The notes under the pieces are model-generated. The model did not search any database, was not told the origin of the DNA, and saw only the letters and a list, made by a program, of their open reading frames with translations. The position numbers were made by a program, and so were the translations under genes. A stretch of DNA of 41,288 bases from Bacteroidaceae bacterium (lineage in GTDB: Bacteria > Bacteroidota > Bacteroidia > Bacteroidales > Bacteroidaceae): NCBI GenBank assembly GCA_017428785.1, contig JAFRQD010000010.1, forward strand, positions 1 through 41,288, in the 5' to 3' direction. Below are positions 6,518-32,100 of the stretch, one piece after another. The first letter of the stretch is position 1. The number at the start of each line of letters is the position of its first letter.

Positions 6518-6549
6518 TTTGAAAAAAAGAAAAAAAAAAGGTAAATTTG
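6518..6549 (+). promoter_or_regulatory. Consensus promoter of the 1513-aa LamG/GLUG gene
   Basis: TTTG at 6518-6521, 20 nt of nearly pure A/G, then TAAATTTG at 6542-6549 gives a full match to the Bacteroidetes -33/-7 consensus. The surrounding A- and T-tracts (6484-6540) could add curvature. The leader to the ATG at 6622 is about 65 nt. Confidence 0.8.
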
Positions 6550-6621
6550 CGGCGGCTAACAAAGGAAAAGAGTCTGATTCGTTATAATACATATTCATTA
6601 ACCCCCCAAAACAACACTATT

Positions 6622-9600
6622 ATGAAAAAAGGACTACTCTTCACACTCCTGCTTGCTTTATTTGGTTTGGTAGGAGGAAGTTTGACAGTAAAGGCTCAGA
6701 CACCTGAACCTACTGCCAAGTGGACATTCGACAACGCCGAGGACCTGATGGCTCCCGCGGTTGGCAATTTAGCCATGACACCCTGTCTGATACCGGAAGA
6801 CAAGACTAACCCGAAGTTTGTCACGCCCACAGACATCGCCACTGCCGGTATCGTCAGGGCAGACGATGAGGAAAAAGGCATCACGGCTATCTATGTGCCC
6901 AGAACCAGCGCATTGAAGGTGCCGCGTGCTGAAGATGCAGAGGAATCTACGACCTACACCATACTCATGGACATTATGGTGCCCAGTGCACAAACCTGGG
7001 TCGGCTTGCTCCAGATGGACGAAAATAACCAAAACGACGGAGACCTCTTTATAAATAATCATAAGGTAGGAATCGCCTCACTGGGAGCCTATGCCGGCAA
7101 CATCGAGGACGGGAAATGGCATCGCATCGTGTTCACCTACAACACAGACTACGAAAGCGGCCAAGGCAGACTCTACTTGGACGGCAAGAAGATTAGGGAA
7201 GGCGGAGAAAACGCACGCCACATCATGCAGCCCTTCGGCTTCTATCTGCTCTGTGACGAAGACGGCGAAGTGAACGACGCATACGTGTCGCAAGTCGCCT
7301 ACTGGGAAACACCGCTTACCGACGAAGAGGTGGCAGAACTGGGTAACGCCATGCCTGCCCATGAACACAACTTCGTCGACTTCTTCTGCACCACATGCGG
7401 CGCCTTCCAGGACGACTACCTGACGCCCAACACCGACGGCTTCTATGAGATTGGCTCAGCAAAGGACCTCTCATGGTTCGAGCTAAAGGTGAACTTGGGC
7501 GAACTTACCGCCAACGCCATCCTCACCGCCGACATCGACTTCGCAGACCTCATGCCAGAAGATGCAAACCCAGATGGGACAGAGATTGACTGGACGCCCA
7601 TCGGCGACTGGGGGCAGTTCAGAGGCACAAGCAACGCTGGCTACCAAGGACACTTCGATGGACAGGGACACACCATCAAGAACCTCAACACAACCTCCAA
7701 GAAGAACTGGTTCGGACTGTTCGGCGTCATCTCGTCAAACTGCATCATCGAGAACTTCGACATCTACGGAACGTATAACATCAGAACTACATATGCAGGC
7801 GGCGTGGCAGCATACTCCCGCGACATCAACCCAACAATCCGCAACGTCCACAGCTTTGTGAACATCAACAACACAAGCGCTGGCGGCAGACAGGGAGGCA
7901 TCCTTGGTGCAGCAATGGTCGACAATGCAAACTATAAGACCACCATCGAGAACTGCATCTACTCCGGCACGCTCGACGGCAACGATGCTGGCGACAGCGG
8001 CAACTACGGCGGCATACTGGGCTATGCCAACAGCAATGTCAACAACATCGTTGTCATCAGCAACTGTCTGTTCGACGGCAAGGTCGTCAACCTCAACGAG
8101 AATCCCGGCGGCTGCACCTTTGGCGGTATCGTCGGTTACTGCAACTCCGCAACAATGAACGTCCAAGGCTGCCTGTCCATCGGCACAGTCAGCGCTGCTG
8201 AGAAGAAGTTCGGCCAACTCTTCGGAGCCCTCAATGGCAACAACACTACCATTACCAACTGCTGCTATCTCGGCGAGTTTGCCAACGGCACAGGCGGTGT
8301 CGGCACAGCAAACGGCGACACACCGGTCTCGGTTGATGAAAGCCAACTTAAAAGCGGCGAGGCCTGCTGGCTGCTGAACGGAGAGACATTCGTCAATCCG
8401 GCATGGCATCAGGTTCTCGGTGAACAGGACTGTCCTCTGCCCTACGGCGAAGGCGTTGTCTACCGGACTGTTGATGGCTATGACATGATTGACTTTGACA
8501 ATTTCGCCGGCTTCCTCAGTGCTGTCCTTGCAGCAGAGACAGCCTACGTCGAAGACGAAGAGCTGGTTGCCTACAATGTATATGTTGATGCATACAAGGC
8601 AACGCTCCAGACTTGGGAAGGCCTCTCGTCGTTCGAAGAACTCTACGAGGCTTACGAGGCCGCTGCCGAGCAGAGGAACGCCCTCAAGGCATCCGCTGCC
8701 AAGTACGCAGAGTACAAGGAGGCTTGCGAAGCCGCTGCCGCTTACATCGAGGAGAACCATCTTGCAGGCGAGAAGACAGACATCCTGCTTGATTACCTTG
8801 AGGACAGCGACATTGAGCCTGGAAGCGAGGTTTATCCCAACGGAGGCTATCCCTACATCATGGCGCACGGCAACCTCGACAACGACGGCATCGACGCTGA
8901 GATTGCATTCGTGAGCAACATGCTCGACATAGCCATTGCTTCCGACGGTATCGCATCGGGCGACGACGTCTCACGCTTCTTCACCAACCTGTCCTTCGCC
9001 GATGGCTTTGAGGGCTGGACGACAGAGAACGACAAGGATGTCAAGCTTGCAACAGGTGGTGTTACTCAAGTGATGCCCCTCGTACACGGATACGGCAAGG
9101 GAGCGTTCAGTGTCTCACAGACTGCCACAGGCCTGCCGAACGGCATCTACATGACTAAGACAAACGCCTTGTTCAGCACAAACGACAACATCAACTTGAG
9201 TTTCTACGCAGGACAGGTCTTCATAAACAACACCGTGAACTATGTCATGGCTCCAGGCGAAGACCTCCTTCCCGAGGACGAAGCGGAGGAAGGCGTCAAC
9301 TATCTGTCCAGCCAGTACCTACTATACGACGGACAGCTCGGCACAGGCTATGTGCCCGTTTCCAGAAACGGCTGCTCATATGCATTCAGCACCGGTCGCT
9401 ACAAGAACTACTGTGCAGCGGAAGTTACTGACGGCTCGCTGACCGTAGGCGTTCGCGCCCTCGGCACCGGCTTGGCATTAGACTGGTTACCATTCAACGG
9501 CATGGAAGTCATCTATCTCGGCACGCCAGACGAAGCCAACTCATATCTCACGGATGTGCTCAAAGCATACTGCGACCGCGCTCAGGTTATCTTGGACTCC

Positions 9601-11163
9601 ACCTGGGACGATACGGACTGTGCTGAGTATCCCAACATGTCTGAAGCCCTGAAGAGCCAGCTTGCAGAGGCTGTTGCTGCTGCTGAAACTGCCGCAAGCG
9701 GCGAGAGCAAGATGGCTGCCATCAATACCTTCTCCGGCCTCTTCAACGATGTATTTGCTTGCCGCATGACCTACATCGAGATGGCTACTACAGCCAACAA
9801 GCTCTACGACTTCATCAACGACTTGGTTGACAATGGCCTCATCTCAGCAGAGTCTGACGAATACAAATACTGGGATGGCGAAATCAATGCCGCTCTGGAT
9901 CACTACCGGATGGGCGATGTGACAGTTGAACAGGCTCAGGAAATCATCGACGCCTTGAACAATTGCGATTTGAAGTTGACTCCCGTTGACGGTGTCTACC
10001 AGCTGGCAAATGTAAAGGATATGATACTCTTCCAGAAGTTAGTGAACGAGGGTAACGACAAGGCCGACGCCGTGCTCACAGCCGACATCGACTTCAGCGA
10101 GTTGGTACCAGAAGGCGAGACTGAAATCACATGGACGCCTATCGGCAACTGGGGGCAGAACGGCATCGGAGTGAAAGATGCTGCCTACAGAGGTCACTTC
10201 GACGGACAAGGCCACACCATTAAGAATTTCAACATCACCGCAAGCCAGCACTACTCCGGTCTCTTCGGTGTCCTCTCCAATGGTGCTGTCATCGAAAACT
10301 TCAGCATCAGCGGTAGCATCTACAACGATAACTACAATCAGTGCGGAACCATCGGCTTTGCCCGCGACAGGGACGTCATAATCCGTAACGTACACAGTTC
10401 TTTGAACATCACAAGCGAAGTCAATACAAGGACCTTCGGCGGCATCCTGGGTCACGCCTTTATCAACAGTACGGTGTACATTGACCGCTGCTCATACTCC
10501 GGCACATTTACCGTGACGGATAATGGCGGAAGCGACGACGGTATGTATGGCGGCATCCTCGGCCATTCCTATAACAATGCCTCCACAAACGTCAACATCA
10601 CCAACTGCCTGTTCGATGGCAAATTAGTGAACACCTTAGCAGAAGAGTCGCCAGTCAACGGCGGCGTCATGGGCGGTATTGTAGGCTGGATAGGTACAAA
10701 TGTCAAGTACAGCATCGACAACTGTCTGTCCATCGGCGAGGTATCGAACACCTGCGCAGGCCAGATTGCCGGCGCACTCCAGAACAATGGTGTCTCCTAC
10801 AGCAACAACTATTATAAGGGTGAAGCTGCCTTTGGTGCTGTAGCGAAATCGACGAATGCCACCACATTGGTAACGGACGAGCAGTTGGCAAGCGGTGAGA
10901 TCTGCTACAAGTTGAACGGCGACCAGAGCGACATCGCTTGGTACCAGACTCTTGCCACGGACAGCTATCCCGTGCTCTTCAAGGACCATCTGCAAGTATG
11001 GCTTGACAATGACACTTACACCAACATCGATCCCGATGGCATTGCTGACGTTCGGGCAACCGAGGCTGTCCAGAACGGCATCTTCAACCTGGCAGGCCAG
11101 CGCCTGAGCAAGCCGGCGAAGGGCATCAACATCGTGGGCAGCAAGAAGATTCTGGTTAAGTAA
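6622..11163 (+). CDS. Secreted LamG- and GLUG-repeat surface protein (1513 aa)
   Basis: This is a large exported protein of unknown exact function, probably an adhesin or glycan-binding protein. The signal peptide MKKGLLFTLLLALFGLVGG ends near VKAQ. A LamG/concanavalin-like domain covers about residues 27-245. A HEHNF...CTTCG linker leads to a first GLUG-type beta-helix block (about 263-600, with GHFDGQGHTIKNLN). A helical, alanine-rich region and a beta-rich region follow (about 620-1110). A second GLUG block (about 1123-1440) contains a near-identical GHFDGQGHTIKNFN. The tail GQRLSKPAKGINIVGSKK resembles a type IX secretion sorting signal. The ATG at 6622 is preferred because the frame upstream starts inside the promoter. 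The 1610-aa protein at 29195-34027 is a relative. Confidence 0.85.
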   Translation: MKKGLLFTLLLALFGLVGGSLTVKAQTPEPTAKWTFDNAEDLMAPAVGNLAMTPCLIPEDKTNPKFVTPTDIATAGIVRADDEEKGITAIYVPRTSALKVPRAEDAEESTTYTILMDIMVPSAQTWVGLLQMDENNQNDGDLFINNHKVGIASLGAYAGNIEDGKWHRIVFTYNTDYESGQGRLYLDGKKIREGGENARHIMQPFGFYLLCDEDGEVNDAYVSQVAYWETPLTDEEVAELGNAMPAHEHNFVDFFCTTCGAFQDDYLTPNTDGFYEIGSAKDLSWFELKVNLGELTANAILTADIDFADLMPEDANPDGTEIDWTPIGDWGQFRGTSNAGYQGHFDGQGHTIKNLNTTSKKNWFGLFGVISSNCIIENFDIYGTYNIRTTYAGGVAAYSRDINPTIRNVHSFVNINNTSAGGRQGGILGAAMVDNANYKTTIENCIYSGTLDGNDAGDSGNYGGILGYANSNVNNIVVISNCLFDGKVVNLNENPGGCTFGGIVGYCNSATMNVQGCLSIGTVSAAEKKFGQLFGALNGNNTTITNCCYLGEFANGTGGVGTANGDTPVSVDESQLKSGEACWLLNGETFVNPAWHQVLGEQDCPLPYGEGVVYRTVDGYDMIDFDNFAGFLSAVLAAETAYVEDEELVAYNVYVDAYKATLQTWEGLSSFEELYEAYEAAAEQRNALKASAAKYAEYKEACEAAAAYIEENHLAGEKTDILLDYLEDSDIEPGSEVYPNGGYPYIMAHGNLDNDGIDAEIAFVSNMLDIAIASDGIASGDDVSRFFTNLSFADGFEGWTTENDKDVKLATGGVTQVMPLVHGYGKGAFSVSQTATGLPNGIYMTKTNALFSTNDNINLSFYAGQVFINNTVNYVMAPGEDLLPEDEAEEGVNYLSSQYLLYDGQLGTGYVPVSRNGCSYAFSTGRYKNYCAAEVTDGSLTVGVRALGTGLALDWLPFNGMEVIYLGTPDEANSYLTDVLKAYCDRAQVILDSTWDDTDCAEYPNMSEALKSQLAEAVAAAETAASGESKMAAINTFSGLFNDVFACRMTYIEMATTANKLYDFINDLVDNGLISAESDEYKYWDGEINAALDHYRMGDVTVEQAQEIIDALNNCDLKLTPVDGVYQLANVKDMILFQKLVNEGNDKADAVLTADIDFSELVPEGETEITWTPIGNWGQNGIGVKDAAYRGHFDGQGHTIKNFNITASQHYSGLFGVLSNGAVIENFSISGSIYNDNYNQCGTIGFARDRDVIIRNVHSSLNITSEVNTRTFGGILGHAFINSTVYIDRCSYSGTFTVTDNGGSDDGMYGGILGHSYNNASTNVNITNCLFDGKLVNTLAEESPVNGGVMGGIVGWIGTNVKYSIDNCLSIGEVSNTCAGQIAGALQNNGVSYSNNYYKGEAAFGAVAKSTNATTLVTDEQLASGEICYKLNGDQSDIAWYQTLATDSYPVLFKDHLQVWLDNDTYTNIDPDGIADVRATEAVQNGIFNLAGQRLSKPAKGINIVGSKKILVK

Positions 11164-14862: not shown

Positions 14863-17800
14863 ATGAAACTAAGAACCTTATTGACCACGTTGCTTCTGCT
14901 CATTGCAGGAGCAGCATCCGCAGCCATCACATCCGGCTACTACCACATCTTGAGCTATAACGGCAAGTATATGACCGAGAACATCAGCGACCACACGCTT
15001 GTATGCTCCGACCTTGCCACACCAACCAATTATGCGCAGGTGTGGTATATCACTGTGTCGGGCTCTTCTGTCACCTTCAAGAATGCTTTGACAAACAGGT
15101 ATATACTGTTCAGCAATTCAGCTTATACCACAAACACCACCCAAAAGACAAGCTTCACGGCGAACGAATCGTCGGGCGTTTATACCTTTGCGAATCAAAG
15201 CGGTGCAGGTTTGCATTGCGACAACGCGAACTTTGTCGTATTTTACTACACCAACGAGGCCAAGTCCAAGTGGACACTCGAGTCAACAACTGTGAATTCA
15301 ACGGAATTGACAAACCAACAAACAGCCCTCACAGAAGCCAACACATCGCAGCTGCAGGCCGTGTTCACAGACTTGTCATGCAGCGCACTGAAGAGCGGCT
15401 ACACAAACAGCGCCGTGAACGCACTGCCCGCCTCCACACAAGCACTGGTCACAAAGATCAAGAACAACACTTGGACCACCTATAGCGGATGGACCAAGAC
15501 AGAGAAGACCTTCCGCATTGCTGACTATAAGGCATACAGCGACCATGACCGCTGGAAGGAAATCTTCGGTTTCACCAACTATACGATGGGGCGCCTCAGC
15601 AATCCCACAGGCATCTGGGTCAACTCGGGAGACATCATACAGGTTTATGTCGGCACCATCCCAAGCGGGCAGAGTGTGAAGCTCGAAGTGGCAGACTACC
15701 AACAAGCATCTGGCACAACCTACGCCCTTCACGAAGGAATGAATTCCCTACTGATAGCCTCCAAGGGCAACTGCTTCGTCAACTATGAGGTTGACAACAC
15801 CACCAATGGCCAAACACCTTATAAGCTGATGTCCACCTATGCCGATGTGACCGTACACATCGAAGGCGGCACCGTGCAGGGCTACTTCGACCTCACCAAA
15901 GGCGATACCGACACCGACTGGGCACAGATGAAGACACACCTCCTGACAGATGTCAGCAACAGGTCCAATGTATGCCTTAAGACAGACAAGCATGTCTTTA
16001 ACCTCAACATAACGAGATTGGAAACATCTCTGGGCACAGGAAGCCTCACGGAGATGCTTAATGTATGGCGGAATGTGGCTCAATGGGAAGACGAATTGAT
16101 GGGACGCTCCGACAACCTCGACAGTAACGGCGGACAGACCAGATACGGGCAATACTGTAACACGCTTTTCTCTGTTACGATGACGACTGACGGCTATGCT
16201 CACGCCTCAAACCATGGCACCTTCTATCCCGCTTTCTACGATGACAACATATACAATGCGAGCAATCTGTTGGGGGTAGCCGACGACATGTGGTGCATCG
16301 CCCACGAACAAGGGCACAACCGCCAAAGTCCCATCAACATGGCTGGCAACACGGAGATATCTAACAATCTCTTCTCCAATGTAGCCATTTACAAGCAGGG
16401 ACGCTTCACCAGCCGCACGGCCAGCATCCAAGAAGTGTTCCGCGATTTCGCCGATGGATTGTCTTGGCCAGAGCGCGTAGCAAAGTCTTGCGACAGCTAT
16501 GGGAATTACAACCAGCAGATGCTGCACCTCAACTGGTCACTCTATCTCTATTTCCATGTCCTGGGCAAAGACCCCGACTTCTTCCCCCGCCTCTTCGACG
16601 CGCTGCGTGCCGACCCGATGACAAAGGTGAAAAGCGGTTCAGCAGATAACAGCACGCTCACTCCTGCAAGCACCGACTACCTGAAGTACTATGTGAAGTG
16701 CTGTGAGGTCAGCGGCTACGACCTCACCGAGTTCTTCGCCACCTACGGCTTTTTCATTCTTCCGGCGGAAAGAGACTACTCAATCACTTATAATAATGTC
16801 ACCACCAACCGCTTTGCCACTCTCAACGACTATGGCTATTACTATCTCTACGCCACACAGGACATGATAGACAATGCCAAGGCACAGGTCGCTAATATGA
16901 ACTTGCCTAAGTGCAACATCACCTTCATTGAGGACCGCGTCACCGCTCCCGATGCCACATACGAAGGCGCGCCATCCGGTACCAAGAGGACTATCAACCC
17001 CGATGCGCCTGTATCAGCCTTCGGACAGGTCGGCGAGACAGGACAATACACCGACTTCGACGCCGAATGCTCGGCATATAAATATAATGTAAAGAATAAC
17101 GCCGTTACGATGGAAGGCACAGGTGCAGTAGGCTTCAAGGTCTATGACAGTGAAGGCAATCTTCGAGGAGTCTACAACACTTATCACTTCACCCTGCCCA
17201 ATGACATCGGCACTGGCTACACCATAAAAGCAGCTGCCGGAAACGGCACTGATGCTGCTGCGACATTCGACGCCAACGTAGGCATCATCACATCGGATGT
17301 GACGGATGTTCTCAGCGCAGGTGCGAAAGTCACGGCCGAGAGCCAACTCATTAGCGGGAAATTGTACTTGCTGCGTAACACGGCAACAGGCAATCCCTGG
17401 ATTACCGACGCCGGAACGTATTACTCCGTAGGCAACAATGGTGGCACCTTTGACGAACGCTGCATGTATTATCTGATTAAGGATGGCGATACATGGAAAA
17501 TAAAGAACTACGTTACAGGGAAATACTGGGGCAAGCCAACCGCAGCTTCTACAACTAACCAAGGAGGTTTCGTGCCCACTGATGAAGCAAATGCCGGCAG
17601 TTGGAGCTTGAACTTTAATAATAACGGTAATATCGACCCACAATGTAATGGATTCTATATTAACCGTGCTTCGCAGAAATTGCACGCTTGGAACGCCTCT
17701 TTGTCATCTCAAATATACGAAGTCATCCTCACCTATCCTCCCTTCTCCGACTTTACCAACAAAGACATTAGCGTCAGCACCGAAGCTGCGGCCTCATTAG

Positions 17801-20800
17801 AAACCGGCAAATGGTATGCGATGTTCGACCGCGGTGCCAATCACGGCTACCTCTATGAGAACAATCAGAACAAGCTCTACAATACTAACACTGTACCCTC
17901 TGGCTCTGCTACGAACAATGCCAAGTACCTCGTCCGCATCGTCGGCTGGGACAACGAGTACTATCTCCAGACAGGCCTCGGCAACTTCTTCGGAAACATA
18001 CAGGGAAGCACGACCGTTCCCACGACAGCCACAGCCACAGAGCAGATTACCATCAAGAAGATTGCAGGCACAGACGGACACTTCTACCTGATGTCTGCTG
18101 CCGGTGTTGTCCTCGATGCCAACGATACAAGAAACGGTGACGCCACTGTCGTAGGCTGGGGCACAACAGCTCCCACTGCCACTGGCGGCAACAACGACTG
18201 GGCATTCTATCCTGTGGAGTTTGTTGATGCATGGGTTCCCACGGCTTCTGATGTCTATACCATCAACAATACGAACAGCGGCCGTGGCGCACTGACCTAT
18301 GAACCAAACAAATCAACAACCTATGTATGGTCAAGTGGAAAGTCGGGGGCTACAGCCTTTGATGCCACAAACCAGAATCATCAATGGGTCATCATTCCCA
18401 CAGGAACAGCGGGACAATACTATTTATATAATGTAGGGGCAGGCAAGTTTGCCATTCCTACAGGCATTGCTCAGAGTGCCGACCTCTCTTGGGTATTCAG
18501 CGACAATGCCGTAGCTGTTATTTTCGAGGATCAAAGCGACGGCACGAAGAAGATTAAGATGGCTTCGAATCCAGTCAACGGCACCAACGCTGCCTATATG
18601 GCCGTCAGCAACAACTACACAGGCCCCATCATCAACTACAATGACGTGGGCGGCAACTTCACCATTACCAAGGTGGGCGGTCAAGACCAGAGTGCAGCCG
18701 CCAACGCAGCCGTTGCCAAGCTCGTCAAGAACCAGACGGCGCTCACAGCTGCACCCACAGCGAGTGGATGGTATGCCTTACAGATCAAGACTGCCGGAAA
18801 TGCCAGCTATGTGAACCGCTATGTTAAAGCAGCAGACAGTGAATACAACTACAACGGCACTTATTATCCGCTTACCTTCACGGGAGCCGTGGATATCCAG
18901 CCTTCCATCAAGGATGCCACTTTCTTTACTTACATTGACATGAGCAGTGGCGCCAAGTGGCAGATGCCGAATGGTAAGTACCTCGTGAATAACAGCAACA
19001 AGTTCCCAACGAGTTCTTCAACGGCTAACAACATTACGATTAGCTCTGACAATAACGGGATATATTTCAAGGGAGGTTACTACTATGCTGTTCCTTACAA
19101 TAGCGGTCAGAACTATTTCATCGGTGAGACATCCCAGGCAGCCAAATACTACAATGTATATCCCATCGACCTCTCTGCTGCTAGTCTCACGGCATGGCAG
19201 GTCCTCTGCGACAATGCTCCAGAAACTGCTCAGATTACCTGCTCTCGCAGCGATGTCAGTGGCTTGACGGCTGTCTATAAGAACGGCTTCTTCTTCCTGC
19301 CCACTGGCGTGACACCTGTAAGCACAGACTTCAACTTGGAGGGAGCAACCAATGTGACCGTGAGTGCAACAGCCAAGACCGTCACCTTTGCTTACGACCC
19401 GACTCTTGCCATTGTTGCTGACGGTGTTACCGTGGAGCAAGGCTGGCAGACGGCAGGTCGCGGTGGCGAGGTGATGCTGCTTCGCGTCACAGCTAAGCCA
19501 TTCAAGGCTGCCACGAGCACGACGCTTACCGTCAACCTCAAGGATGGTTCCGAGAGTAACATCTCCGCCTTGAAGCTTTATGAGGCCAACTCCAACTCAC
19601 CTGAGATCTACTCTACAGGCGACGGAGCACCGACAAAGACAGTGGTTGCCACGACATCCATCTCTGGCTCTACTGCTACCTTCAACATCGGCAATCTCGC
19701 TGCTGGCACACACTACTACTGGATTGGTGCTACGGTGAAGAGCGATGCGACACTTGGAGCCGTTCTCGATGCAGCCGTCACTGGCATCTCCTATCAAGTG
19801 GCTGGGCAAACGGCACAAGCCCTCGACCTGACCTCTGTTGGCGACCCTGCCGACCGTGGCGCAATGGTCTTCAATGCACAGTCCTATCCCTTCCTGCCTC
19901 GCGACAACAGCAGCCGTGTTTATCGTATTCCAGCCATGATTGTTGCCGACGACGGCAGCATCGTCGTGGCTTGCGACAAGCGTTATAACAGCCACACCGA
20001 TATCGGCGCAGGCCACGTCATCGACATCGTCGTGCGTCGCTCTACCGACGGCGGCAAGACATGGAGCAGTCCCATTACCATTGCCAAGGGTCTCGGCACT
20101 GCCGACGATGCCAAGTGCGGCTATGGCGACCCGAGCCTCGTGAAGGGCAAGGACGGCAAGCTCTACTGCCTGTTCGTGGCCGGCAACATCGGTTACTTCT
20201 ATGGGCAGAAGCGTATCGCCATGTCAACCAGCACGGACAACGGCGTGACATGGAGCAGCAACGAGAGCACACCGCCCATCGACCTCCTGGAGAGCGGCCG
20301 CCTTAAAAACTACAACACGGTTGGCGAGGCTGGCTACGGCCTCTATGACTACTTCGTAACCTCTGGTCGCGGCCTCTACATCCCCGACGACGACATCCTG
20401 ATGTACCTCATCCCGGCACAGACAATGACAAGCGCCACCGAGCACACCAGCGACTCACAAGACTACATCTTCTACTCCAGAGACGGCGGTGAGTCATGGT
20501 ACTTCAGTGAGAACCCCATGGTTCAAGGAGGCGACGAAGCCAAGATTATCCAGATGAATGATGGCTCGCTCTTCGGCTCCATCCGCAAGGGAGGTCCACG
20601 CCGCTTCAACACCGCCACCTATACAAAGAACGACGACGGCAAGACGCTCAGCTTCAACTTCGGCACGCAATGGGAAAACAACCAGCTCTATCAGTCCAGC
20701 CAGAACAACCAGGACATCTTCTATTACCAGCGCGAGACGACAGAGGGCAAGACCGACGTCATCATCCACTCCATCACGACTGGCAACCACGCCAACTTCA

Positions 20801-22092
20801 AGCTCTACTACAGCACCGACAAGGGTGTCAACTGGACAGAGTTCCTGAACGTGCAGACCAAGGGCACACGCTATGTGACGATGGACAAGAATCCGGCCAA
20901 CGGCAGCCTGTACCTCTTCTTCGAGGACCAGAGCCTCAACAGCGCCGGCGGCTACACCGACTACAACCACTATCCCTTGAACTTCATCGAGATTACACGC
21001 GACCAGCTTGTGAGCCTCATTCCTGCTCTGGAGGAATACAATGTGCCCGAATACCTGGAGGCAAAGGATGTGAAGATTGTCAACGGATTATCTGGCGAAA
21101 GCAACTTCGGCTCATGGAGCGGCCTCACCTGGACTTCCAATGCTGCCAGCGGAGTTGCAGGGCTGACCATGACACTGAGCGACGGCGCATACAACAGATT
21201 CTCGAATTTTAACGGCCGCTACAATCTGGCTTATCACCCCGCCGCAGCCAACACCAACTCCACCATAACGCTGACGGCACCCGAAGGCTATGTCATCACG
21301 GGCTATTCCGTACAGACAGGCGTATATCAGGGTACCACATACACCCTGACGGCTTCCGACGGCACATCCGTAACACCGGCCAACCTCGGCAGCACCTACA
21401 CGCCTCTCGAGGTTACTGGCTTGTCGGCAACATCAACAACTATCACCGTCACCACGACTGATGCCAGCAAGTGGCTGTCTTTGGCCAACTTCACTGTTTC
21501 CCTCGCCAAGACTCTCCCGCTCAATGTTGTGGGCGACAAGAGCTATGCAACGCTCTACCTGCCGTTCGATGTGACGACGACAGGCGCAACGAAGGCATAC
21601 TACATCGAGACAGCCAGCAACAGATATGCTCATCTGACCGCTACGGGCAACGATGGCACGGAGATTCCTGCCCGTACCGCTGTGGTGCTCGTCAACGAGG
21701 ACGCAGAGCCAAGCACCATCCTCAACATGGCCAGCGACCTGACCTCCGTGGTCAGCGAGAGCGCCAACCTGCTGAAGGGTACCTTGGTGCCGATGAGCCT
21801 CGACCTCAGCGATGGCACTCCCTATTATTCCATGGGACGCCTGAACGGGGAGATTGGCTTCTACAAATATACAGACGGCACCATCACGCTCGGTGCCAAC
21901 AAAGCCTACCTCGAGGTGCCTGCAAGCGGCGGTGCCAAGGGCTACACGCTCGACTTCGACGATGCCACAGGCCTTAAAGACCTTAAGGGCCTTAAGGACT
22001 CTGATGACCTCATCTACAATCTCTCTGGCCAGCGCATGAGCAAGCCTGTCAAGGGTATCAACATCATCAACGGAAAGAAAGTATTGAAATAG
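14863..22092 (+). CDS. Secreted M60-like metallopeptidase fused to GH33 sialidase (2409 aa)
   Basis: This giant exported protein appears to join two mucin-attacking enzymes. After the signal peptide (MKLRTLLTTLLLLIAGAASA) and a beta-rich N-domain, an M60/enhancin-type peptidase carries HEQGH at 481-485 and a third metal ligand at Glu498 (HExxH, 12 residues, E). A long middle part (about 840-1560) contains repeated lectin-like beta modules. About 1560-1680 resembles the domain that precedes bacterial sialidases. The GH33 beta-propeller follows, with YRIP at 1687-1690 and four Asp-boxes (STDGGKTW 1727-1734, STDNGVTW 1790-1797, SRDGGESW 1872-1879, STDKGVNW 1984-1991). The SIRKGG segment supplies a likely second arginine of the triad. 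The protein ends with a SYATLYLPF domain (about 2216-2290) and a GQRMSKPVKGINIINGKK tail. It leads a four-gene plus-strand run. Confidence 0.9.
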   Translation: MKLRTLLTTLLLLIAGAASAAITSGYYHILSYNGKYMTENISDHTLVCSDLATPTNYAQVWYITVSGSSVTFKNALTNRYILFSNSAYTTNTTQKTSFTANESSGVYTFANQSGAGLHCDNANFVVFYYTNEAKSKWTLESTTVNSTELTNQQTALTEANTSQLQAVFTDLSCSALKSGYTNSAVNALPASTQALVTKIKNNTWTTYSGWTKTEKTFRIADYKAYSDHDRWKEIFGFTNYTMGRLSNPTGIWVNSGDIIQVYVGTIPSGQSVKLEVADYQQASGTTYALHEGMNSLLIASKGNCFVNYEVDNTTNGQTPYKLMSTYADVTVHIEGGTVQGYFDLTKGDTDTDWAQMKTHLLTDVSNRSNVCLKTDKHVFNLNITRLETSLGTGSLTEMLNVWRNVAQWEDELMGRSDNLDSNGGQTRYGQYCNTLFSVTMTTDGYAHASNHGTFYPAFYDDNIYNASNLLGVADDMWCIAHEQGHNRQSPINMAGNTEISNNLFSNVAIYKQGRFTSRTASIQEVFRDFADGLSWPERVAKSCDSYGNYNQQMLHLNWSLYLYFHVLGKDPDFFPRLFDALRADPMTKVKSGSADNSTLTPASTDYLKYYVKCCEVSGYDLTEFFATYGFFILPAERDYSITYNNVTTNRFATLNDYGYYYLYATQDMIDNAKAQVANMNLPKCNITFIEDRVTAPDATYEGAPSGTKRTINPDAPVSAFGQVGETGQYTDFDAECSAYKYNVKNNAVTMEGTGAVGFKVYDSEGNLRGVYNTYHFTLPNDIGTGYTIKAAAGNGTDAAATFDANVGIITSDVTDVLSAGAKVTAESQLISGKLYLLRNTATGNPWITDAGTYYSVGNNGGTFDERCMYYLIKDGDTWKIKNYVTGKYWGKPTAASTTNQGGFVPTDEANAGSWSLNFNNNGNIDPQCNGFYINRASQKLHAWNASLSSQIYEVILTYPPFSDFTNKDISVSTEAAASLETGKWYAMFDRGANHGYLYENNQNKLYNTNTVPSGSATNNAKYLVRIVGWDNEYYLQTGLGNFFGNIQGSTTVPTTATATEQITIKKIAGTDGHFYLMSAAGVVLDANDTRNGDATVVGWGTTAPTATGGNNDWAFYPVEFVDAWVPTASDVYTINNTNSGRGALTYEPNKSTTYVWSSGKSGATAFDATNQNHQWVIIPTGTAGQYYLYNVGAGKFAIPTGIAQSADLSWVFSDNAVAVIFEDQSDGTKKIKMASNPVNGTNAAYMAVSNNYTGPIINYNDVGGNFTITKVGGQDQSAAANAAVAKLVKNQTALTAAPTASGWYALQIKTAGNASYVNRYVKAADSEYNYNGTYYPLTFTGAVDIQPSIKDATFFTYIDMSSGAKWQMPNGKYLVNNSNKFPTSSSTANNITISSDNNGIYFKGGYYYAVPYNSGQNYFIGETSQAAKYYNVYPIDLSAASLTAWQVLCDNAPETAQITCSRSDVSGLTAVYKNGFFFLPTGVTPVSTDFNLEGATNVTVSATAKTVTFAYDPTLAIVADGVTVEQGWQTAGRGGEVMLLRVTAKPFKAATSTTLTVNLKDGSESNISALKLYEANSNSPEIYSTGDGAPTKTVVATTSISGSTATFNIGNLAAGTHYYWIGATVKSDATLGAVLDAAVTGISYQVAGQTAQALDLTSVGDPADRGAMVFNAQSYPFLPRDNSSRVYRIPAMIVADDGSIVVACDKRYNSHTDIGAGHVIDIVVRRSTDGGKTWSSPITIAKGLGTADDAKCGYGDPSLVKGKDGKLYCLFVAGNIGYFYGQKRIAMSTSTDNGVTWSSNESTPPIDLLESGRLKNYNTVGEAGYGLYDYFVTSGRGLYIPDDDILMYLIPAQTMTSATEHTSDSQDYIFYSRDGGESWYFSENPMVQGGDEAKIIQMNDGSLFGSIRKGGPRRFNTATYTKNDDGKTLSFNFGTQWENNQLYQSSQNNQDIFYYQRETTEGKTDVIIHSITTGNHANFKLYYSTDKGVNWTEFLNVQTKGTRYVTMDKNPANGSLYLFFEDQSLNSAGGYTDYNHYPLNFIEITRDQLVSLIPALEEYNVPEYLEAKDVKIVNGLSGESNFGSWSGLTWTSNAASGVAGLTMTLSDGAYNRFSNFNGRYNLAYHPAAANTNSTITLTAPEGYVITGYSVQTGVYQGTTYTLTASDGTSVTPANLGSTYTPLEVTGLSATSTTITVTTTDASKWLSLANFTVSLAKTLPLNVVGDKSYATLYLPFDVTTTGATKAYYIETASNRYAHLTATGNDGTEIPARTAVVLVNEDAEPSTILNMASDLTSVVSESANLLKGTLVPMSLDLSDGTPYYSMGRLNGEIGFYKYTDGTITLGANKAYLEVPASGGAKGYTLDFDDATGLKDLKGLKDSDDLIYNLSGQRMSKPVKGINIINGKKVLK

Positions 22093-22158: not shown

Positions 22159-22341
22159 ATGAACAAACGTATATATATATCCCCTTGTGCTTGTGTCTGC
22201 GAGATTTCAGGAAGAGGCATGATGTCCACATCGATAAAAATAGGTTCTTCGGAGGAAAAGGTCAGCAATAGCGAAGATATCGGTTTCGCCAAAGAACAAA
22301 ATTCCCAGGAAGACAGAGGCCTCTGGAACGATGAATGGTAA
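22159..22341 (+). CDS. Small 60-aa protein ending in LWNDEW
   Basis: A short frame, MNKRIYISPCACVCEISGRG..., ends with LWNDEW and lies 66 nt after the sialidase gene. It overlaps the start of the SGNH hydrolase gene by 11 nt, which suggests translational coupling. Short Bacteroidales proteins with an N-terminal YISP and an acidic, tryptophan-containing end are familiar as unannotated neighbours of surface-protein genes, but no function is known to me. It has three cysteines, no membrane segment and no signal peptide. No maturation enzyme is seen nearby. Confidence 0.6.
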   Translation: MNKRIYISPCACVCEISGRGMMSTSIKIGSSEEKVSNSEDIGFAKEQNSQEDRGLWNDEW

Positions 22342-23734
22342 TTGCATTCTGAGGAGGCTTCTCCTTGGCCTACTGCTTTCGCCCTGTGTCTGCACGCTTA
22401 TGCAGGCACAGGGTGTTGCACCTTTCAAGGAGGGAGACCGCGTGGCGTTCGTGGGCAACAGCATCACCGACGGCGGGCACTACCACTCCTACATTTGGCT
22501 CTACTACATGACGCACTTCCCCAGGATGCGTCTGTGGATGGCAAACTGCGGCGTGGGCGGCGATACGGCGAAAGAGATACTGGCACGCTTCGACGACGAT
22601 GTGCTGGAGAAGAACCCGACCGTCCTGACCTTCACCTTCGGCATGAACGATACGGGCTACTACGAGTACAACAGCGCCGATTCTGCCCGCTTCGCCCATC
22701 AGAAGCTGCAGGAAGCCAGGGAGCGGTTCGCGCTTTGCGAAGAGAAGCTGAGGAGCCTCAAAGGTGTCCGCACCGTGATGATCGGCACTTCGCCTTACGA
22801 CCAGACTTCCACCTTCAACGACGACATCTATGCCCGCAAGAACGACAACATGCAGCGCGTCGTCGCCCTACAGAAAGAGGCTGCCAGGAGAAACAACTGG
22901 GAGTTCCTGGACTTCAATGCGCCGATGGTGGCGCTCAATATGAAGCAACAGGAGACCGACCCAGCCTTCACGCTCATCGGCTCCGACCGCGTGCATCCGG
23001 ACAACGACGGGCACATGGCCATGGCCTACCTCTTCCTGGAGGCTCAGGGCATGAAGGGCAAGAAGGTGGCCGACATGCAGTTGGATGCCGCCAAAGGCAA
23101 AGCGACGAAAGCCGACAACTGCCGCATCACGAAGGTGAGGGCGACAGCCGACATGTTGCAGTTCGACTGCCTGGCAGAGTCCCTACCCTTCCCTCTCGAC
23201 ACCATTCCCCGTGGCTGGGGCTTCAAGCATGGAGCGGCACAAGTCACGAAGGTCATCCCCACATTCATCGACGACCTGAGCGACGAGCACCTGACCGTAA
23301 CAGGCCTTAGCGGCAGCTACGAGCTGAGCATCGACGCCATCACTATTGATACGCTTTCAGCCGCCATGCTTGCCCAAGGCATCAACCTCTCCCGATACCG
23401 CCACACGCCGCAATATCAGCAGGCCCTGACGGTGATGGCTCTGAACGAGACGCGCTGGGATGTGGAACGCAGGTTCCGCGAATGGGCATGGGTCAACTAC
23501 AACTTCATGATGCCGGCGGGCTTCCTGAACGACTGCAGCGAGCAGGCTGCGCAGAAGTACCGCGAGCTATGCAAAGGCAACGACTGGCTGGCGAGCAAGC
23601 GAGGCACCTACGACCAGATGGTCCGCCCCGAAGTGCGGGATGCCTATCAGAAGGAGATGGACCTCCTCGTAGGCCGGATATACGAACTGAACCAGCCGAA
23701 GAAGCACACTTTCCGGCTGAAAAAACTGACATAA
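22331..23734 (+). CDS. Secreted SGNH/GDSL-family hydrolase
   Basis: This 467-residue exported esterase-type enzyme has a signal peptide at about 1-27 (RRLLLGLLLSPCVCTLMQAQ). The SGNH blocks are clear: block I VGNSITDGG with the nucleophile serine, block II NCGVGGDT with glycine, block III FGMNDT with asparagine, and block V DRVHPDNDGH with the catalytic Asp and His. Residues after about 240 form a separate helical and beta region with no recognised motif. Family members de-acylate sugars or lipids. Beside a sialidase, a sialate or mucin O-acetylesterase role is plausible but unproven. The start codon lies inside the preceding 60-aa gene. Confidence 0.85.
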   Translation: MNGNCILRRLLLGLLLSPCVCTLMQAQGVAPFKEGDRVAFVGNSITDGGHYHSYIWLYYMTHFPRMRLWMANCGVGGDTAKEILARFDDDVLEKNPTVLTFTFGMNDTGYYEYNSADSARFAHQKLQEARERFALCEEKLRSLKGVRTVMIGTSPYDQTSTFNDDIYARKNDNMQRVVALQKEAARRNNWEFLDFNAPMVALNMKQQETDPAFTLIGSDRVHPDNDGHMAMAYLFLEAQGMKGKKVADMQLDAAKGKATKADNCRITKVRATADMLQFDCLAESLPFPLDTIPRGWGFKHGAAQVTKVIPTFIDDLSDEHLTVTGLSGSYELSIDAITIDTLSAAMLAQGINLSRYRHTPQYQQALTVMALNETRWDVERRFREWAWVNYNFMMPAGFLNDCSEQAAQKYRELCKGNDWLASKRGTYDQMVRPEVRDAYQKEMDLLVGRIYELNQPKKHTFRLKKLT

Positions 23735-23763: not shown

Positions 23764-23863
23764 CCCTTGAAAACGCCGCGTGCGGCGATGCCCAACGCCG
23801 CACGCGGAAATGCCCATCGCCGCACGCGGGGATTGCCATCGCCGCACGCGGCGTTTTCAAGGG
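23764..23863. repeat. Four-unit 22-bp palindromic element, copy 2
   Basis: Units start at 23774, 23796, 23818 and 23840, each 22 bp with the core CGCCGCACGCGG or its reverse complement. The 27-bp ends at 23764-23790 and 23837-23863 are perfect reverse complements and begin CCCTTGAAAACGCCGCG. The element lies between the co-directional SGNH hydrolase and phosphoesterase genes. It could fold into a strong hairpin in the mRNA and lower expression of the downstream gene. Confidence 0.9.
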
Positions 23864-23908
23864 CCTCTGCGGGGGACAATTCTCCCAACCTATCAAACAC
23901 CGAAAACC

Positions 23909-25042
23909 ATGAACAGAAGAGACTTTCTGACACTATCCGCCACGGGAATCATCGGCCTCGGCGCCAGCAGTTTCCCGCTGTCAGCACTTGCAAAAGGGAA
24001 GGGCGACAGGTCGTACTCGATGATTATCCTGGGCGACACACACTTCGATGCCGACCCGCCATCGATATATCACGCACATTACAACGAGCCGAACGAGAGG
24101 CTCAACAAGATACAGCGCGGCGAGTTCGCCCGCAACGGGGAGATGTGGAAAGACCGTTGCCCCCGCCTCCTCAAAAGGGCGGCCAGGCTGATTGACAAGG
24201 ACACGCGCATGGTGCTGCAGATGGGCGACCTCGTTCAGGGCGACTGCGGCAGCGGCGAGGTGCACAAGAAGATGCTCTCCGACGTCATGAACCGCTTCAA
24301 GCACGAGCTGGGCGGCCTCCCCTTCGTCACCGTAGTGGGCAACCACGATATCCGCGGCACAGATGCCCTCGAGGCCTATCACTCATTCATGCCGCCCCGC
24401 ATGTCAGAAGAGCTGGGCAAAAGCATCAGCAAGACCACTTTTGCCTTCAATGTGGGCGACGACGCATTCATCGTCATCGACTTCAACAATCCCGATGACG
24501 CAGAGGTGGACCGACTGCTGGACGACACGAAGGGAGCACGCCACACCTTTGTCATGACCCACGGCCCCGTGCTTCCACCGGACATCAGCAGCTGCCGATG
24601 GTTCTTCCACGGAGGAGCATCCGAAGCCAACACACAGGCACGCCGCCATTTCCGCCAAGCCTTCGCCAAGCGCAACGCCATCGTGCTGTGCGGACATACC
24701 CACTACACCGACTTCATGGACTGGTGGGGAGACGGCGGACGCATCACGCAGATGACCATGAGCAGCGTCTGGACGGCAGAGGAACAGAAGCAATACGCCG
24801 TCCGCAACGAGGGAGCAGAGAACTACGGCTTGATGCGCAAGAAGATGATGGAGAAGCCCGACGGCGCCAACCTCAAGGACGAGTCAGCGCTCTTCGAGGA
24901 ATATCTGCCCGGCACCCGTCAGCTCATCAATTCCCGCTCGCAGGGTTCCTACAAGCTGAACGTCAGCAAGAAGCACATCAGCATCGATTTCTATGGCGGC
25001 GACTCGGAAGAAGTGTCGCACAGGTTCGTCATCCGAGAGTAA
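23909..25042 (+). CDS. Exported calcineurin-like metallophosphoesterase
   Basis: This 377-residue protein contains the full set of metal-ligand motifs: GDTHFD near residue 37, MGDLVQGDCGS, VGNHDIRG, MTHGPV and CGHTHYTDF. The start MNRRDFLTLSATGIIGLGA gives a twin-arginine-like motif and a hydrophobic stretch, so it is probably exported; whether by Tat or Sec cannot be told. A longer frame begins inside the upstream 22-bp repeat element and is not believed. The family hydrolyses phosphomonoesters or diesters with two metal ions. The substrate is unknown. It is last in the plus-strand run that starts with the sialidase. Confidence 0.87.
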   Translation: MNRRDFLTLSATGIIGLGASSFPLSALAKGKGDRSYSMIILGDTHFDADPPSIYHAHYNEPNERLNKIQRGEFARNGEMWKDRCPRLLKRAARLIDKDTRMVLQMGDLVQGDCGSGEVHKKMLSDVMNRFKHELGGLPFVTVVGNHDIRGTDALEAYHSFMPPRMSEELGKSISKTTFAFNVGDDAFIVIDFNNPDDAEVDRLLDDTKGARHTFVMTHGPVLPPDISSCRWFFHGGASEANTQARRHFRQAFAKRNAIVLCGHTHYTDFMDWWGDGGRITQMTMSSVWTAEEQKQYAVRNEGAENYGLMRKKMMEKPDGANLKDESALFEEYLPGTRQLINSRSQGSYKLNVSKKHISIDFYGGDSEEVSHRFVIRE

Positions 25043-29194: not shown

Positions 29195-32100
29195 TCACTT
29201 AACAAGAATCTTCTTGCCGTTCACGATATTGATGCCCTTCTGCATCTTCTGCAAGCGCTGGCCAGCGAGGTTGTAGACAGCATTGTCGGTGCCCTTCGCT
29301 TCGTTAAGGTCTGCGATGCCGGTACTATTGTCCTCTCCGAATATGAAGGCCTTCACGCCGCTAGCGTTTTCAAGGTAAGCCTTGCCTGCCTTGATGACGC
29401 CAGAATCAGCCAGATAGAAGCCAACAGGTTCGCCTTCGGGCTGTGCAAGAACATACTTGCCGACAGCATCGATATCCTCAGCCGCTCCCTTCAGGACATT
29501 GCCTGCAATGTTGTCGGGATAGCCTGAATAGGTTATCGTCATGCTGATGATGCGCCATTGCTTGGAGCCTGTGTTGGAGAATGTTATGCTCTCAGCGCTG
29601 CCTGTCCATGTAGTGGTGGCGAGGGCATAGCTGCCTTCACTGATCTGATAGCTTCCGCTCTGGAGAGCATAGTTATTGACAAAGGTGAACTCTATCTTGG
29701 TAATAGGTGCTACGGCAGAGATAGTCATAGTGTTGCCTGCATAGATGCGTGCTGCAGCACCGCTGGTGTAGTACTTTGGTACTAAGTCTGCGGTATTACT
29801 GCCTTGAGCGAAGCCAATGGTCAAGCCTCCCTGCTGAAGAGGAGTGAGGTCTGCTGCATTTTCAAAGCCCAGATCAGCAAAGACTATTTCTGTGCTCTTC
29901 TCTTCAGCAGTTGCCGGCATGAAGCCATAGAAGCCAGGAGCGCCCTTGAGCACTACAGGCTCCCAAGCGGGAACAGTGCCCTCCACAGCATTGAGCTTCA
30001 GCCAGCTCTCTTCGTACTCGCCTGTGAAGACCTCAACGCCTGCAGGAATATCCACAGAGTTGGGAATGTACATCGTGGCATAGCCTGCCTCGGTAATCTC
30101 CTTCACGACAGCATGTGTCTTGTCGAAGACGGGATAAGCATCCTCGCCGATGTTCTGGTACCAGCCTTGGCCGAGCTTAGCACAGAGCGAGCCGTTGGCA
30201 ACCTCCTCGGCTGTAATGGCCGTGCCCTGTACTGTACCAATCGCGTTGAGATAGTAGCAGTTGTTGTAGGTTCCTCTGTCGTTATGGATGAACGTGAAGC
30301 AGCTGCCGGTGCCGGTGCCTTCGGTGAGCTCGCTGATGGTGTAGCAGTTATTGAGGGTAGCGGAAGAAGCGCCGTGGCTGAATCCAGAGAAGCCGCTATA
30401 CATCGAGCTGCCTTCATAACCCATCTTGCCGAGCGTAGCGCAGTTGTTGAATGTGATGTTGCCATAGAGGGCGCCGAGCACGCCGCCATCGCCGGTCACG
30501 CCGTTTTTCTGACCTGTGATGTTGACGTTGGTGATGACATTCTCAACGAGCACATTGCCTTCTGCACGGCCGATGAGGGCGCCATAGTGGATAGCTGTCA
30601 CGATGGCATTGCCCTCTACAATCAGGTTGCGGATGGTAGCGCCGCTGACGTATCTGAAGAGGCCGCAGTAGTTGCTGGAGACGGTGTAGCTATAGGTGAT
30701 GGTGTGTCCTGCTCCGTCGAATGTGCCGGCATACTTGTTGGTTTCCGAAGCAATCATCAGGTCGGGATAGTCGCTTGTGGTAAGGTCGATGTCAGCCGTC
30801 AGGAGGCCATCGATAGCTGTTGCACCGGATGCAATCTTCTGTGCGAACCAGTTCAGCTTTTCTGCATTGTCGATGAGGTAGAAGCCGTCCTTGTTCTGCA
30901 TCACGCTGCCGCATACTGTGCAGTAGCCGTCGGCGTTGTACTGGTGGTCGGGCTTGTTCATCTGACCTTCCACATTGCTGTAGGTGACGGGGCTGTCGGG
31001 AATCTCTGCACCGTCGCAACGAACAGTACCGTTGGCATAAACCTGTCCGTGAGAGGCGAAGGGAACGGGCTTGGCGTCGGTGCCGACCGTCTGATACCAG
31101 TTGATTTCGCTCTGGTCGCCGTTGAGCTTGTAGCAGAACTCGCCGCTTGCGAAGTCTTCGGTGATGAGGTTGCCCTGTACTTTTCCAACCTCATAGAGGT
31201 AGTAGCTGTTGTTGATTTCGACTGGGCCGCCCTCATGTGTCAGGGTGAAGCAGTTGCCAGTACCGGTGCCAGCGGTGAGCTTGCAAGTGGTGTAGCAGTT
31301 GTTGAGTGTTGTCTTGCTGTTGGCATTCGACCATCCGGAGAAGCTGCTGTACATTGAGGTGCCCTCGTTGCCCATTTCGCCGAGCGTAGCGCAGTGGTTG
31401 AAGGTGATGTTGGCGTAGTTAGCGCCCAGCATGCCTGCGTCGCCCTGCACACCTTTTGGGGACTTGCCTGTGATGTCAACATCTGTCACGACATTCTCGA
31501 CGAGAACCGTGCCATAAGCCACACCGATGAGTGCTCCGAAGTGAATGTCCGTCGAGGTAGCGCTGCCCTCAACGCGAAGGTTGCGGATGGTGGCGTTCTC
31601 GACGGAACGGAAGAGGCCGCGCCACTGGGCGGTGACATTAGCGTAATTATATGTGATGGTGTGCTCCTGGCCGTCGAAGATGCCGCTGAACCTGTTGCTT
31701 TCGGAAGCGACCATGAGGTCGGGATAATCGGTTCTCAGGTCGATATCGGCCGTCAGCCTTATATTAAGTGAGGGATTGCCCTTTTCCATGTACTCGGCAA
31801 ACCAAGCAAATTCTTTTGCATTGGCAATGAGGCTGTACCCTTCGCCATCAACAGGAAGCTTATAGTTTGCATCCCATGTGCCGCAGACAGAGCACCAGCC
31901 GAAGCCGCCATCGAAGGTGTGAGGAGGAATCACGGAGGTTGAAGAATTGCTGTAAGTAAGCTCTCCATCGCCAGCGCTCGTGCCGTCGCACTTCAGCTCA
32001 CCGTTAGCGTAAACCTGAAGATGAGAATCGAAGGGAACGGGCGTGGCGTCCTCGCCGAGCGTCTGATACCAGTTGACTGAGCTCTGGTCGCCGTTGAGCA

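What the first reader, a model, noticed from the sequence alone, without database searches (positions are those of the whole stretch)
14863..22092. Single-chain fusion of an M60 mucin-type peptidase and a GH33 sialidase
HEQGH plus Glu498 and, 1200 residues later, YRIP with four Asp-boxes are in one open frame of 2409 codons. M60-like proteases of gut bacteria cut O-glycosylated mucin-type proteins, and sialic acid on the glycan can affect such cleavage. A tethered sialidase could clear the way for the protease on the same molecule. The middle carries several lectin-like modules that could hold the substrate.
Basis: partly seen in the sequence, partly recalled or inferred. Interest (0 to 1): 0.8.

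Follow-up and report, generated by a model that had tools for sequence, protein, structure and literature searches.

The report
Mucin-cutting protease fused to sialidase
A gut bacterium related to ruminant-stomach species carries one very large, probably secreted protein that joins a mucin-cutting protease to an enzyme domain expected to strip sialic acid from mucin, and that sialidase domain has an unusual, rearranged active site.

Summary
One 2,409-codon frame (14863-22092 +) encodes a signal-peptide-like start, an M60 O-glycopeptidase, about 700 residues with beta-trefoil lectin-like modules, and a sialidase propeller with YRIP, four Asp-boxes and catalytic Asp, Glu and Tyr. It is not an assembly join: eight genomes, of 139 of the genus searched, carry an M60-sialidase fusion. 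Of 18 close M60 domains (window included), 8 are fused to a sialidase; 9 of the other 10 lie in a same-strand cluster with a sialidase catalytic domain, and the tenth lies next to a sialidase-type gene cut by its contig end. Published work shows that sialidase in trans can raise or enable M60 cleavage.

Of 62 distinct sialidase domains from the genus, 31 show both changes, 29 neither, none only one; 2 are partial. The 30 such domains on the tree form one clade. Best reading: a cis-acting desialylate-then-cut mucinase with a rearranged arginine triad. New architecture as far as my searches show, from known parts. No activity was measured.

The parts
14863..22092 (+). whole gene, 2,409-residue M60-lectin-sialidase protein
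   Evidence: one open frame, ATG start, no stop inside
14863..14922 (+). signal-peptide-like N-terminus (about residues 1-20)
   Evidence: read by eye from the translation; no signal-peptide predictor was run
14923..15312 (+). N-terminal module, residues 21-150, lectin-like by eye
   Evidence: found before the M60 domain in all 18 close M60 domains by blastp; fold not predicted
15325..17262 (+). M60 O-glycopeptidase region, residues 155-800 (PF13402 at 371-629, M60_C at 738-797)
16303..16317 (+). zinc site HEQGH, residues 481-485
   Evidence: H481, E482, H485 in 18 of 18 close M60 domains, window included
16354..16356 (+). third zinc ligand Glu498
   Evidence: 18 of 18
16291..16293 (+). Trp477, expected contact to the first GalNAc (W321 of AM0627)
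   Evidence: 18 of 18; W-to-R spacing 41 as in AM0627 W321/R362 (PMC9118916 passages)
16414..16416 (+). Arg518, expected GalNAc contact (R362 of AM0627)
   Evidence: 18 of 18
16282..16284 (+). Asp474, three before Trp477, the place of AM0627 D318, which is reported to help block a sugar on GalNAc O6
   Evidence: present in 9 of 18; 8 have Gly, 1 Ser
17305..19392 (+). middle region, residues 815-1510, with beta-trefoil lectin-like modules
   Evidence: model pLDDT 74, pTM 0.59; Foldseek top hits are multi-trefoil fascins and two-trefoil HA33 lectins, with low whole-length TM scores
18220..18705 (+). best-defined beta-trefoil, about residues 1120-1281
19390..19872 (+). N-terminal beta-sandwich of the sialidase, residues 1510-1670 (BNR_assoc_N-like)
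   Evidence: PF14873 19.9 bits, below its 25 cut-off; 8gn6_B aligns over model residues 9-547
19885..20997 (+). sialidase propeller, residues 1675-2045
19924..19926 (+). Arg1688, first triad arginine (YRIP)
19999..20001 (+). Asp1713, acid/base
   Evidence: 31 of 31 like domains; aligned to D219 of PG0352 (PMC10553830 passages)
20536..20538 (+). Glu1892, partner of the catalytic Tyr
   Evidence: 31 of 31
20584..20586 (+). Arg1908, second triad arginine
   Evidence: 31 of 31
20788..20790 (+). His1976 where the third triad arginine should be
   Evidence: H in 30 and F in 1 of 31; R in 29 of 29 other genus sialidases
20869..20874 (+). Arg2003-Tyr2004: arginine directly before the catalytic Tyr
   Evidence: R2003 in 31 of 31; A or C in 29 of 29 others
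21055..21522 (+). beta-rich module after the sialidase, residues 2065-2220
   Evidence: modelled as strands; shared with many relatives
21520..22089 (+). C-terminal region and tail, residues 2220-2409, possible secretion or sorting tail
   Evidence: shared by many relatives; no NCBIfam match to residues 2221-2409

Best explanation
A secreted, cis-acting mucin-degrading enzyme. The beta-trefoil modules hold O-glycosylated protein. The C-terminal sialidase domain removes the terminal sialic acid that shields the inner GalNAc. The N-terminal M60 O-glycopeptidase then recognises the exposed GalNAc (Tn or T) and cuts the peptide just before it. Because both enzymes sit on one chain, the product of the first is made beside the second. 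A likely natural substrate is salivary mucin reaching the rumen, which is rich in sialyl-Tn. The sialidase binds the sialate carboxylate with two canonical arginines plus Arg2003, which has taken over from the lost third arginine. Shown here: the single frame, its recurrence, the domain identities and residues, and the linkage to sialidase genes. Inferred: secretion, both catalytic activities, sugar binding by the middle, the habitat and substrate, and the role of Arg2003.
For: Both domains pass curated Pfam cut-offs and match solved enzymes. M60 zinc and GalNAc-contact residues are invariant in 18 of 18 close M60 domains. The fusion is seen in eight genomes of 139 searched. Of the 10 non-fused close M60 genes, 9 sit in a same-strand cluster with a sialidase catalytic domain and the tenth (L104) next to a sialidase-type gene cut by the contig end; intergenic gaps -1 to 560 bases. 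The fused/separate state changes at least four times on the M60 tree, so the pairing is kept while the join comes and goes. Sialidase in trans boosts or enables some M60 enzymes. D474 matches an AM0627/BT4244 residue reported to block a sugar on GalNAc O6. Catalytic Asp, Glu, Tyr, second Arg, D1756 and E2021 are kept in 31 of 31 domains with the unusual triad, which argues against decay. Of 11 named related contigs, two titles say sheep rumen, two yak reticulum, one red deer; six are RUG isolates, which I recall as rumen genomes. Bovine secreted mucins are reported transcribed from the abomasum onwards, and most bovine submaxillary mucin glycans are sialyl-Tn.
Against: No activity was measured. 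The third arginine is missing from its normal place. D474 is Asp in only 9 of 18 M60 domains, so the steric argument does not hold for all fused members. Some M60 enzymes accept sialylated glycans: ZmpB, ZmpC and IMPa, and BcM60F with no significant loss on 2,3-sialyl core 1; AM0627 itself was found cutting at sialyl-T sites. Most genomes of the genus showed no fusion, so being on one chain is not essential. The own genome's three other M60 genes were not checked for sialidase neighbours. The middle model is only moderately confident. [quoted passage not shown]
Confidence: 0.6

Rival explanations
1. Two mucin enzymes are simply co-packaged for secretion and surface display; both are active but do not help each other in cis.
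For: The same lectin, sialidase and tail modules are joined to GH20, SGNH and M60 heads in the genus, which looks like combinatorial packaging. The neighbouring-gene form (10) is as common as the fusion (8) among close M60 domains.
Against: M60 stays with a sialidase gene or domain in 17 of 18 close cases and probably in the eighteenth. Published trans data show that desialylation aids some M60 enzymes.
Confidence: 0.25
2. The sialidase domain is catalytically dead or very weak and serves as a sialic-acid-binding anchor for the M60 protease.
For: The third triad arginine is absent in the whole clade. In several clusters a canonical sialidase lies next to the unusual one (L106, L107, L112, L121), which could supply the activity.
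Against: Catalytic Asp, Glu, Tyr and second Arg are present in 31 of 31, and Arg2003 is found beside the Tyr in exactly those. GH181 sialidase is active with Gln at the third-arginine place (PMC10067855 passages), although its mechanism differs.
Confidence: 0.15
3. The unusual sialidase is active but on a different acid sugar or linkage (O-acetylated Neu5Gc, Kdn, internal or branched sialic acid), and the coupling to M60 concerns that sugar.
For: Coupled change at 1976 and 2003-2005 plus other positions that separate the two groups, and co-occurrence with canonical sialidases in clusters.
Against: Residues at the places of PG0352 Arg213 (O4), Asp256 and, one position off, Glu504 (R1707, D1756, E2021) are kept.
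Confidence: 0.2
4. The fusion is an assembly or frameshift artefact joining two genes.
For: The side-by-side form exists in relatives, and the named relatives are draft assemblies, mostly MAGs.
Against: Eight genomes carry a fusion, with no stop inside the matches.
Confidence: 0.01

Closest known systems
BT4244-type M60-like O-glycopeptidases (BT4244 5kd2, AM0627 7sci, B. caccae BcM60K/C)
   Same: HExxH...E zinc site, GalNAc-contact Trp and Arg with the same 41-residue spacing, Asp before Trp as in AM0627 and BT4244
   Different: Known ones carry binding or adhesion modules such as CBM32, BACON, Ig-like or FN3. Table 4 of PMC3267712 (section 8 read) lists Pfam partners of 415 M60-like proteins and names no glycoside hydrolase catalytic domain; here a sialidase and beta-trefoils are on the chain.
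P. gingivalis sialidase PG0352/SiaPG (8gn6, 8feb)
   Same: Top sequence and Foldseek match, N-terminal beta-sandwich included; YRIP, Asp219 and Glu382 equivalents. H1976-to-Y2004 spacing is 28, as Arg460-to-Tyr488
   Different: Arg460 place is His1976 and Arg2003 stands just before the Tyr. The PG0352 sequence alignment stops at 1938, so this equivalence rests on the genus and order alignments and the spacing.
GH181 sialidase AmGH181 (Amuc_1547)
   Same: Also lacks the third GH33 arginine and changes the residue pair at the nucleophile position (PMC10067855 passages)
   Different: GH181 has Gln in place of Tyr and inverts; the window keeps the Tyr and has Arg before it.
SiaBb3, bifunctional GH123-sialidase of Bifidobacterium bifidum
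   Same: A sialidase tethered to a second mucin-acting enzyme whose step needs prior desialylation (PMC12856340 passages)
   Different: The partner is a glycosidase, not a peptidase; different phylum and modules.
HC11 of B. fragilis
   Same: M60 mucinase that needs its binding module and prior desialylation of native mucin (PMC13003899 passages)
   Different: There the sialidase acts in trans; in the window protein a sialidase domain is in cis.

Membership tests
Peptidase M60-like (PF13402) | Profile match over the curated cut-off | tested here: met
   67.5 bits against 25.8; M60_C 39.5 against 26.2
Peptidase M60-like (PF13402) | HExxH with distal Glu, GalNAc-contact Trp and Arg | tested here: met
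   H481, E482, H485, E498, W477, R518 in 18 of 18 close M60 domains, window included
Peptidase M60-like (PF13402) | O-glycan-dependent peptide cleavage | not testable with these tools
   needs an assay
GH33 sialidase | Propeller fold and sequence kinship | tested here: met
GH33 sialidase | Y/FRIP motif and Asp-boxes | tested here: met
   YRIP at 1687, four Asp-boxes
GH33 sialidase | Catalytic Asp, Glu and Tyr | tested here: met
   D1713, E1892, Y2004; each in 31 of 31
GH33 sialidase | Canonical three-arginine cluster | tested here: not met
   first and second Arg present, third is H1976; an Arg is found at 2003 instead. I therefore call it a sialidase domain of GH33 fold and sequence kin, not a proven canonical GH33 sialidase
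GH181 | Gln in place of the catalytic Tyr | tested here: not met
   Tyr at 2004 in 31 of 31 (feature)
Beta-trefoil (ricin-B-like) lectin modules | Beta-trefoil fold | tested here: met
Beta-trefoil (ricin-B-like) lectin modules | Sugar binding | not testable with these tools
   no Pfam lectin match in this protein at E 0.01; two fused relatives have RicinB_lectin_2 matches below the cut-off
Type IX secretion cargo | PorU sortase in the genome | tested here: met
   NF033707 996 bits, cut-off 420
Type IX secretion cargo | Recognised C-terminal sorting domain | tested here: not met
   no NCBIfam match to residues 2221-2409 at E 5; secretion route left open

The most novel reading that the evidence does not exclude
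A clade of GH33-fold sialidases has moved the third carboxylate-binding arginine from its ancestral strand to the residue next to the catalytic tyrosine. That gives a new active-site layout, probably with altered sialic-acid or linkage preference. These Bacteroidales have repeatedly welded this enzyme and its canonical sisters to the protease or hexosaminidase whose step follows or accompanies it, giving single-chain mucin-degrading assemblies.
Probability: 0.4. Interest if true: 0.72.

Novelty: new variant of a known kind. Interest (0 to 1): 0.6.

Why it matters
Mucin breakdown is usually described as separate exoglycosidases and proteases acting in sequence, often from different bacteria. 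Here a protease and a sialidase domain expected to unmask its target share one chain, and the same pair appears as neighbouring genes in related species. That gives a natural system to test whether cis coupling speeds mucin cutting. The fusion also suggests a substrate (sialylated salivary mucin in the rumen) and could serve as a one-enzyme mucinase for sialylated glycoproteins. Separately, the coupled His1976/Arg2003 change is a clean natural case for asking how a textbook active-site arginine can be replaced.

Tried and rejected
Assembly artefact: rejected after eight fused genomes. Loss of Tyr/Glu: rejected. Canonical type IX tail: not found by NCBIfam. Sialate lyase as a sign of sialic acid use: TIGR00683 matched in 30 of 31 genomes but over its cut-off in 0 of 31; it rang in 14 of 14 control genomes, over the cut-off in one, so it is uninformative.

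Other M60-sialidase fusions outside the genus: no row pair of that kind in a phylum sample of 395 genomes, and no M60 match in the frames of the 29 order-level loci held. At most two or three candidates per genome were scored and the loci were short, so this is weak. Not every kind of genome was sampled.

Limits of the counts. The 62 distinct sialidase domains come from loci fetched for their likeness to the window protein, so 31 against 29 is no census. One sialidase of L102/L117 fell out as a duplicate in that script. Two of 62 (L011, L099) lack the residues and were not counted; these two and L112_7100 were left out of the tree, which was rooted at the midpoint for drawing only and carries long-branch warnings. 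In the other-family check I had loci for 29 of the 40 matches; 28 are fully covered and canonical, and of the split L060 only the two pieces were looked at, apart. Two further close M60 matches (G019, G496) end at contig ends and were not fetched.

Alignment A1 used a wrong stretch of L002 and was discarded. VIA-align rows cover little beyond the best-defined trefoil, and whole-length Foldseek TM scores for the middle are low. No coordinates were available, so the distance of R2003 from a bound sialate was not measured.

Literature: searches listed no paper on an M60-sialidase fusion or on an arginine relocated next to the sialidase Tyr. Only an open-licence library was searched, and most hits were seen as listings only.

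Full report
What is there. The window lies in a 2.98-Mb, 71-contig genome assembly. Eleven named contigs that encode relatives are labelled Bacteroidaceae or Bacteroidales; two titles say sheep rumen, two yak reticulum, one red deer, and six are RUG isolates, which I recall as rumen genomes. That the window's own bacterium lives in a rumen is inferred from these. Frame 14863-22092 (+) is open for 2,409 codons. It starts with a signal-peptide-like stretch (read by eye), then a small module, an M60 region (PF13402 at 371-629; 5kd2 matches 161-768 at E 1.6e-54), a middle of about 700 residues, a sialidase (BNR_2 at 1721-2000; 8gn6 E 3.7e-31 over 1652-1938), a beta-rich module and a C-terminal tail.

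It is not an artefact. In a search of 139 genomes of the genus (two candidates scored per genome, so a lower bound), near-full-length matches with an M60 and a sialidase in one frame appear in G000, G016, G497, G495, G467, G479 and G015. An eighth, G001, joins the same M60 type to a canonical sialidase; the G015 sialidase is canonical too (domain maps, residues).

The pairing is kept while the join comes and goes. Among 18 close M60 domains (window included; 50% identity or more), 8 are fused and 10 are separate genes. Nine of the 10 lie in a same-strand cluster with at least one sialidase catalytic domain (L021's is a divergent sialidase). In the tenth, L104, the neighbour has the lectin modules and the start of the sialidase region and is then cut by the contig end. 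Intergenic gaps in these clusters run from -1 to 560 bases when each frame is taken from its first Met. Two further M60 matches, in G019 and G496, sit at contig ends and were not fetched; the own genome's three other M60 genes were not examined for neighbours. On the M60 tree the fused or separate state needs at least four changes. In G503 and G457 the order is unusual sialidase, GH20-sialidase, M60 (L106, L107).

A wider shuffling system. The same lectin, sialidase and tail modules are found with GH20 hexosaminidase heads in 11 of the 59 genus sialidases placed on the tree, with SGNH heads in 2 and with M60 in 8.

The unusual active site. By published numbering PG0352 uses Arg194, Arg398 and Arg460 for the carboxylate, with Asp219, Glu382 and Tyr488 (PMC10553830, passages). 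The window protein has R1688, R1908, D1713, E1892 and Y2004, but H1976 at the Arg460 place: the spacing to the Tyr is 28 in both, and the genus and order alignments agree. The sequence match to PG0352 itself stops before this part. The residue before the Tyr is R2003 instead of Ala or Cys. Of 62 distinct genus sialidase domains, 31 have His or Phe at 1976 together with Arg at 2003, 29 have Arg at 1976 with Ala or Cys at 2003, 2 are partial, and none is intermediate. In the 31, Asp1713, Glu1892, Arg1908, Tyr2004, Asp1756 and Glu2021 never vary, and Asp1891 is Asn in two. The 30 of them on the tree are the 30 rows of one group at 100/100. Of sialidases from other families of the order, I aligned those of 29 loci (of 40 matches): all 28 fully covered ones are canonical, as is the C-terminal piece of a 29th that is split by a stop. 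So a canonical ancestor most likely changed both positions. My reading is that Arg2003 stands in for the lost arginine; a dead, binding-only domain and a changed sugar preference remain open. GH181 is a precedent for activity with another residue at the third-arginine place, by a different mechanism (PMC10067855, passages).

How it most likely works. M60 O-glycopeptidases such as OgpA cut before a glycan-bearing Ser or Thr (PMC7518263, start of abstract in a listing; that OgpA belongs with the M60-like enzymes is recalled). In trans, sialidase raises BcM60K rates 3- to 5-fold, though BcM60F showed no significant preference (PMC13355702, passages). It lets HC11 cut native mucus (PMC13003899, passages) and helps AM0627 on MUC2, although AM0627 can accommodate sialyl-T (PMC9118916, passages). 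The last paper names a Tyr and an Asp in AM0627 and BT4244 that block a sugar on GalNAc O6. The Asp equivalent is D474 here, but only 9 of 18 close domains have it, and the Tyr equivalent is uncertain from sequence. Bovine secreted mucins are reported transcribed from the abomasum onwards, with weak MUC19 in one omasum (PMC3056801, passages), and most bovine submaxillary mucin glycans are sialyl-Tn (PMC11992087, passages). That salivary mucin is the substrate is my inference. A mucin-degrading rumen-epithelium species with three GH33 genes, Pseudoprevotella muciniphila, is described (PMC8136628, passages); its kinship to this genus was not tested. The genome has a type IX sortase, but the tail matched no NCBIfam model, so the export route is open.

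Novelty. A survey of 415 M60-like proteins in 2012 lists no glycoside hydrolase catalytic partner (PMC3267712, section 8 read). My six literature searches listed no M60-sialidase fusion and no arginine moved next to the sialidase Tyr. A sialidase fused to a second mucin enzyme is known (SiaBb3, PMC12856340, passages). I therefore rate it a new variant of a known kind, with a bolder reading for the active site.

Noticed in passing
L015 5785-12393, L016 2226-7832, L106 9186-15116 and others: GH20 hexosaminidase and sialidase in one chain in 11 genus proteins placed on the tree, 9 of them with canonical sialidases; reminiscent of enzymes for Sda-type glycans.
   Followed up: partly
L025 3584-8260, L026 2386-7551: SGNH/GDSL hydrolase and sialidase in one chain, a possible sialate O-acetylesterase-sialidase pair.
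   Followed up: partly
L106 3580-19205, L107 1-13945: Tandem cluster of unusual sialidase, GH20-canonical sialidase and M60 on one strand; the two sialidase kinds side by side suggest division of labour.
   Followed up: partly
L102 9381-19649: 3,422-codon frame ending in lectin modules and a sialidase; its first 2,163 residues hold Laminin_G_3, PKD and F5/8 type C domains. Its sialidase gave the same identities as that of the neighbouring frame 1465-8982, perhaps a recent module copy.
   Followed up: partly
L019 1370-8650: 2,426-codon frame with an M60 domain at 1714-1967 and RicinB-like modules, no sialidase match.
   Followed up: no
window 22331-23734 and 23780-25042: Downstream on the same strand: an SGNH/GDSL hydrolase and a metallophosphoesterase; the SGNH could be a sialate O-acetylesterase.
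   Followed up: no
window 29195-34027 (-) and 6547-11163 (+): Two other very large proteins with a Laminin_G_3 match; the first also has a marginal match to the M26 N-terminal region (28.7 bits, cut-off 27.7).
   Followed up: no
L051 (own genome C7, 824-codon frame): A second sialidase-like protein in the own genome with YRIP and three Asp-boxes; BNR_2 below cut-off.
   Followed up: no
L013 3624-11006: The G001 fusion has Lys at the second triad arginine, another departure from the usual triad.
   Followed up: no
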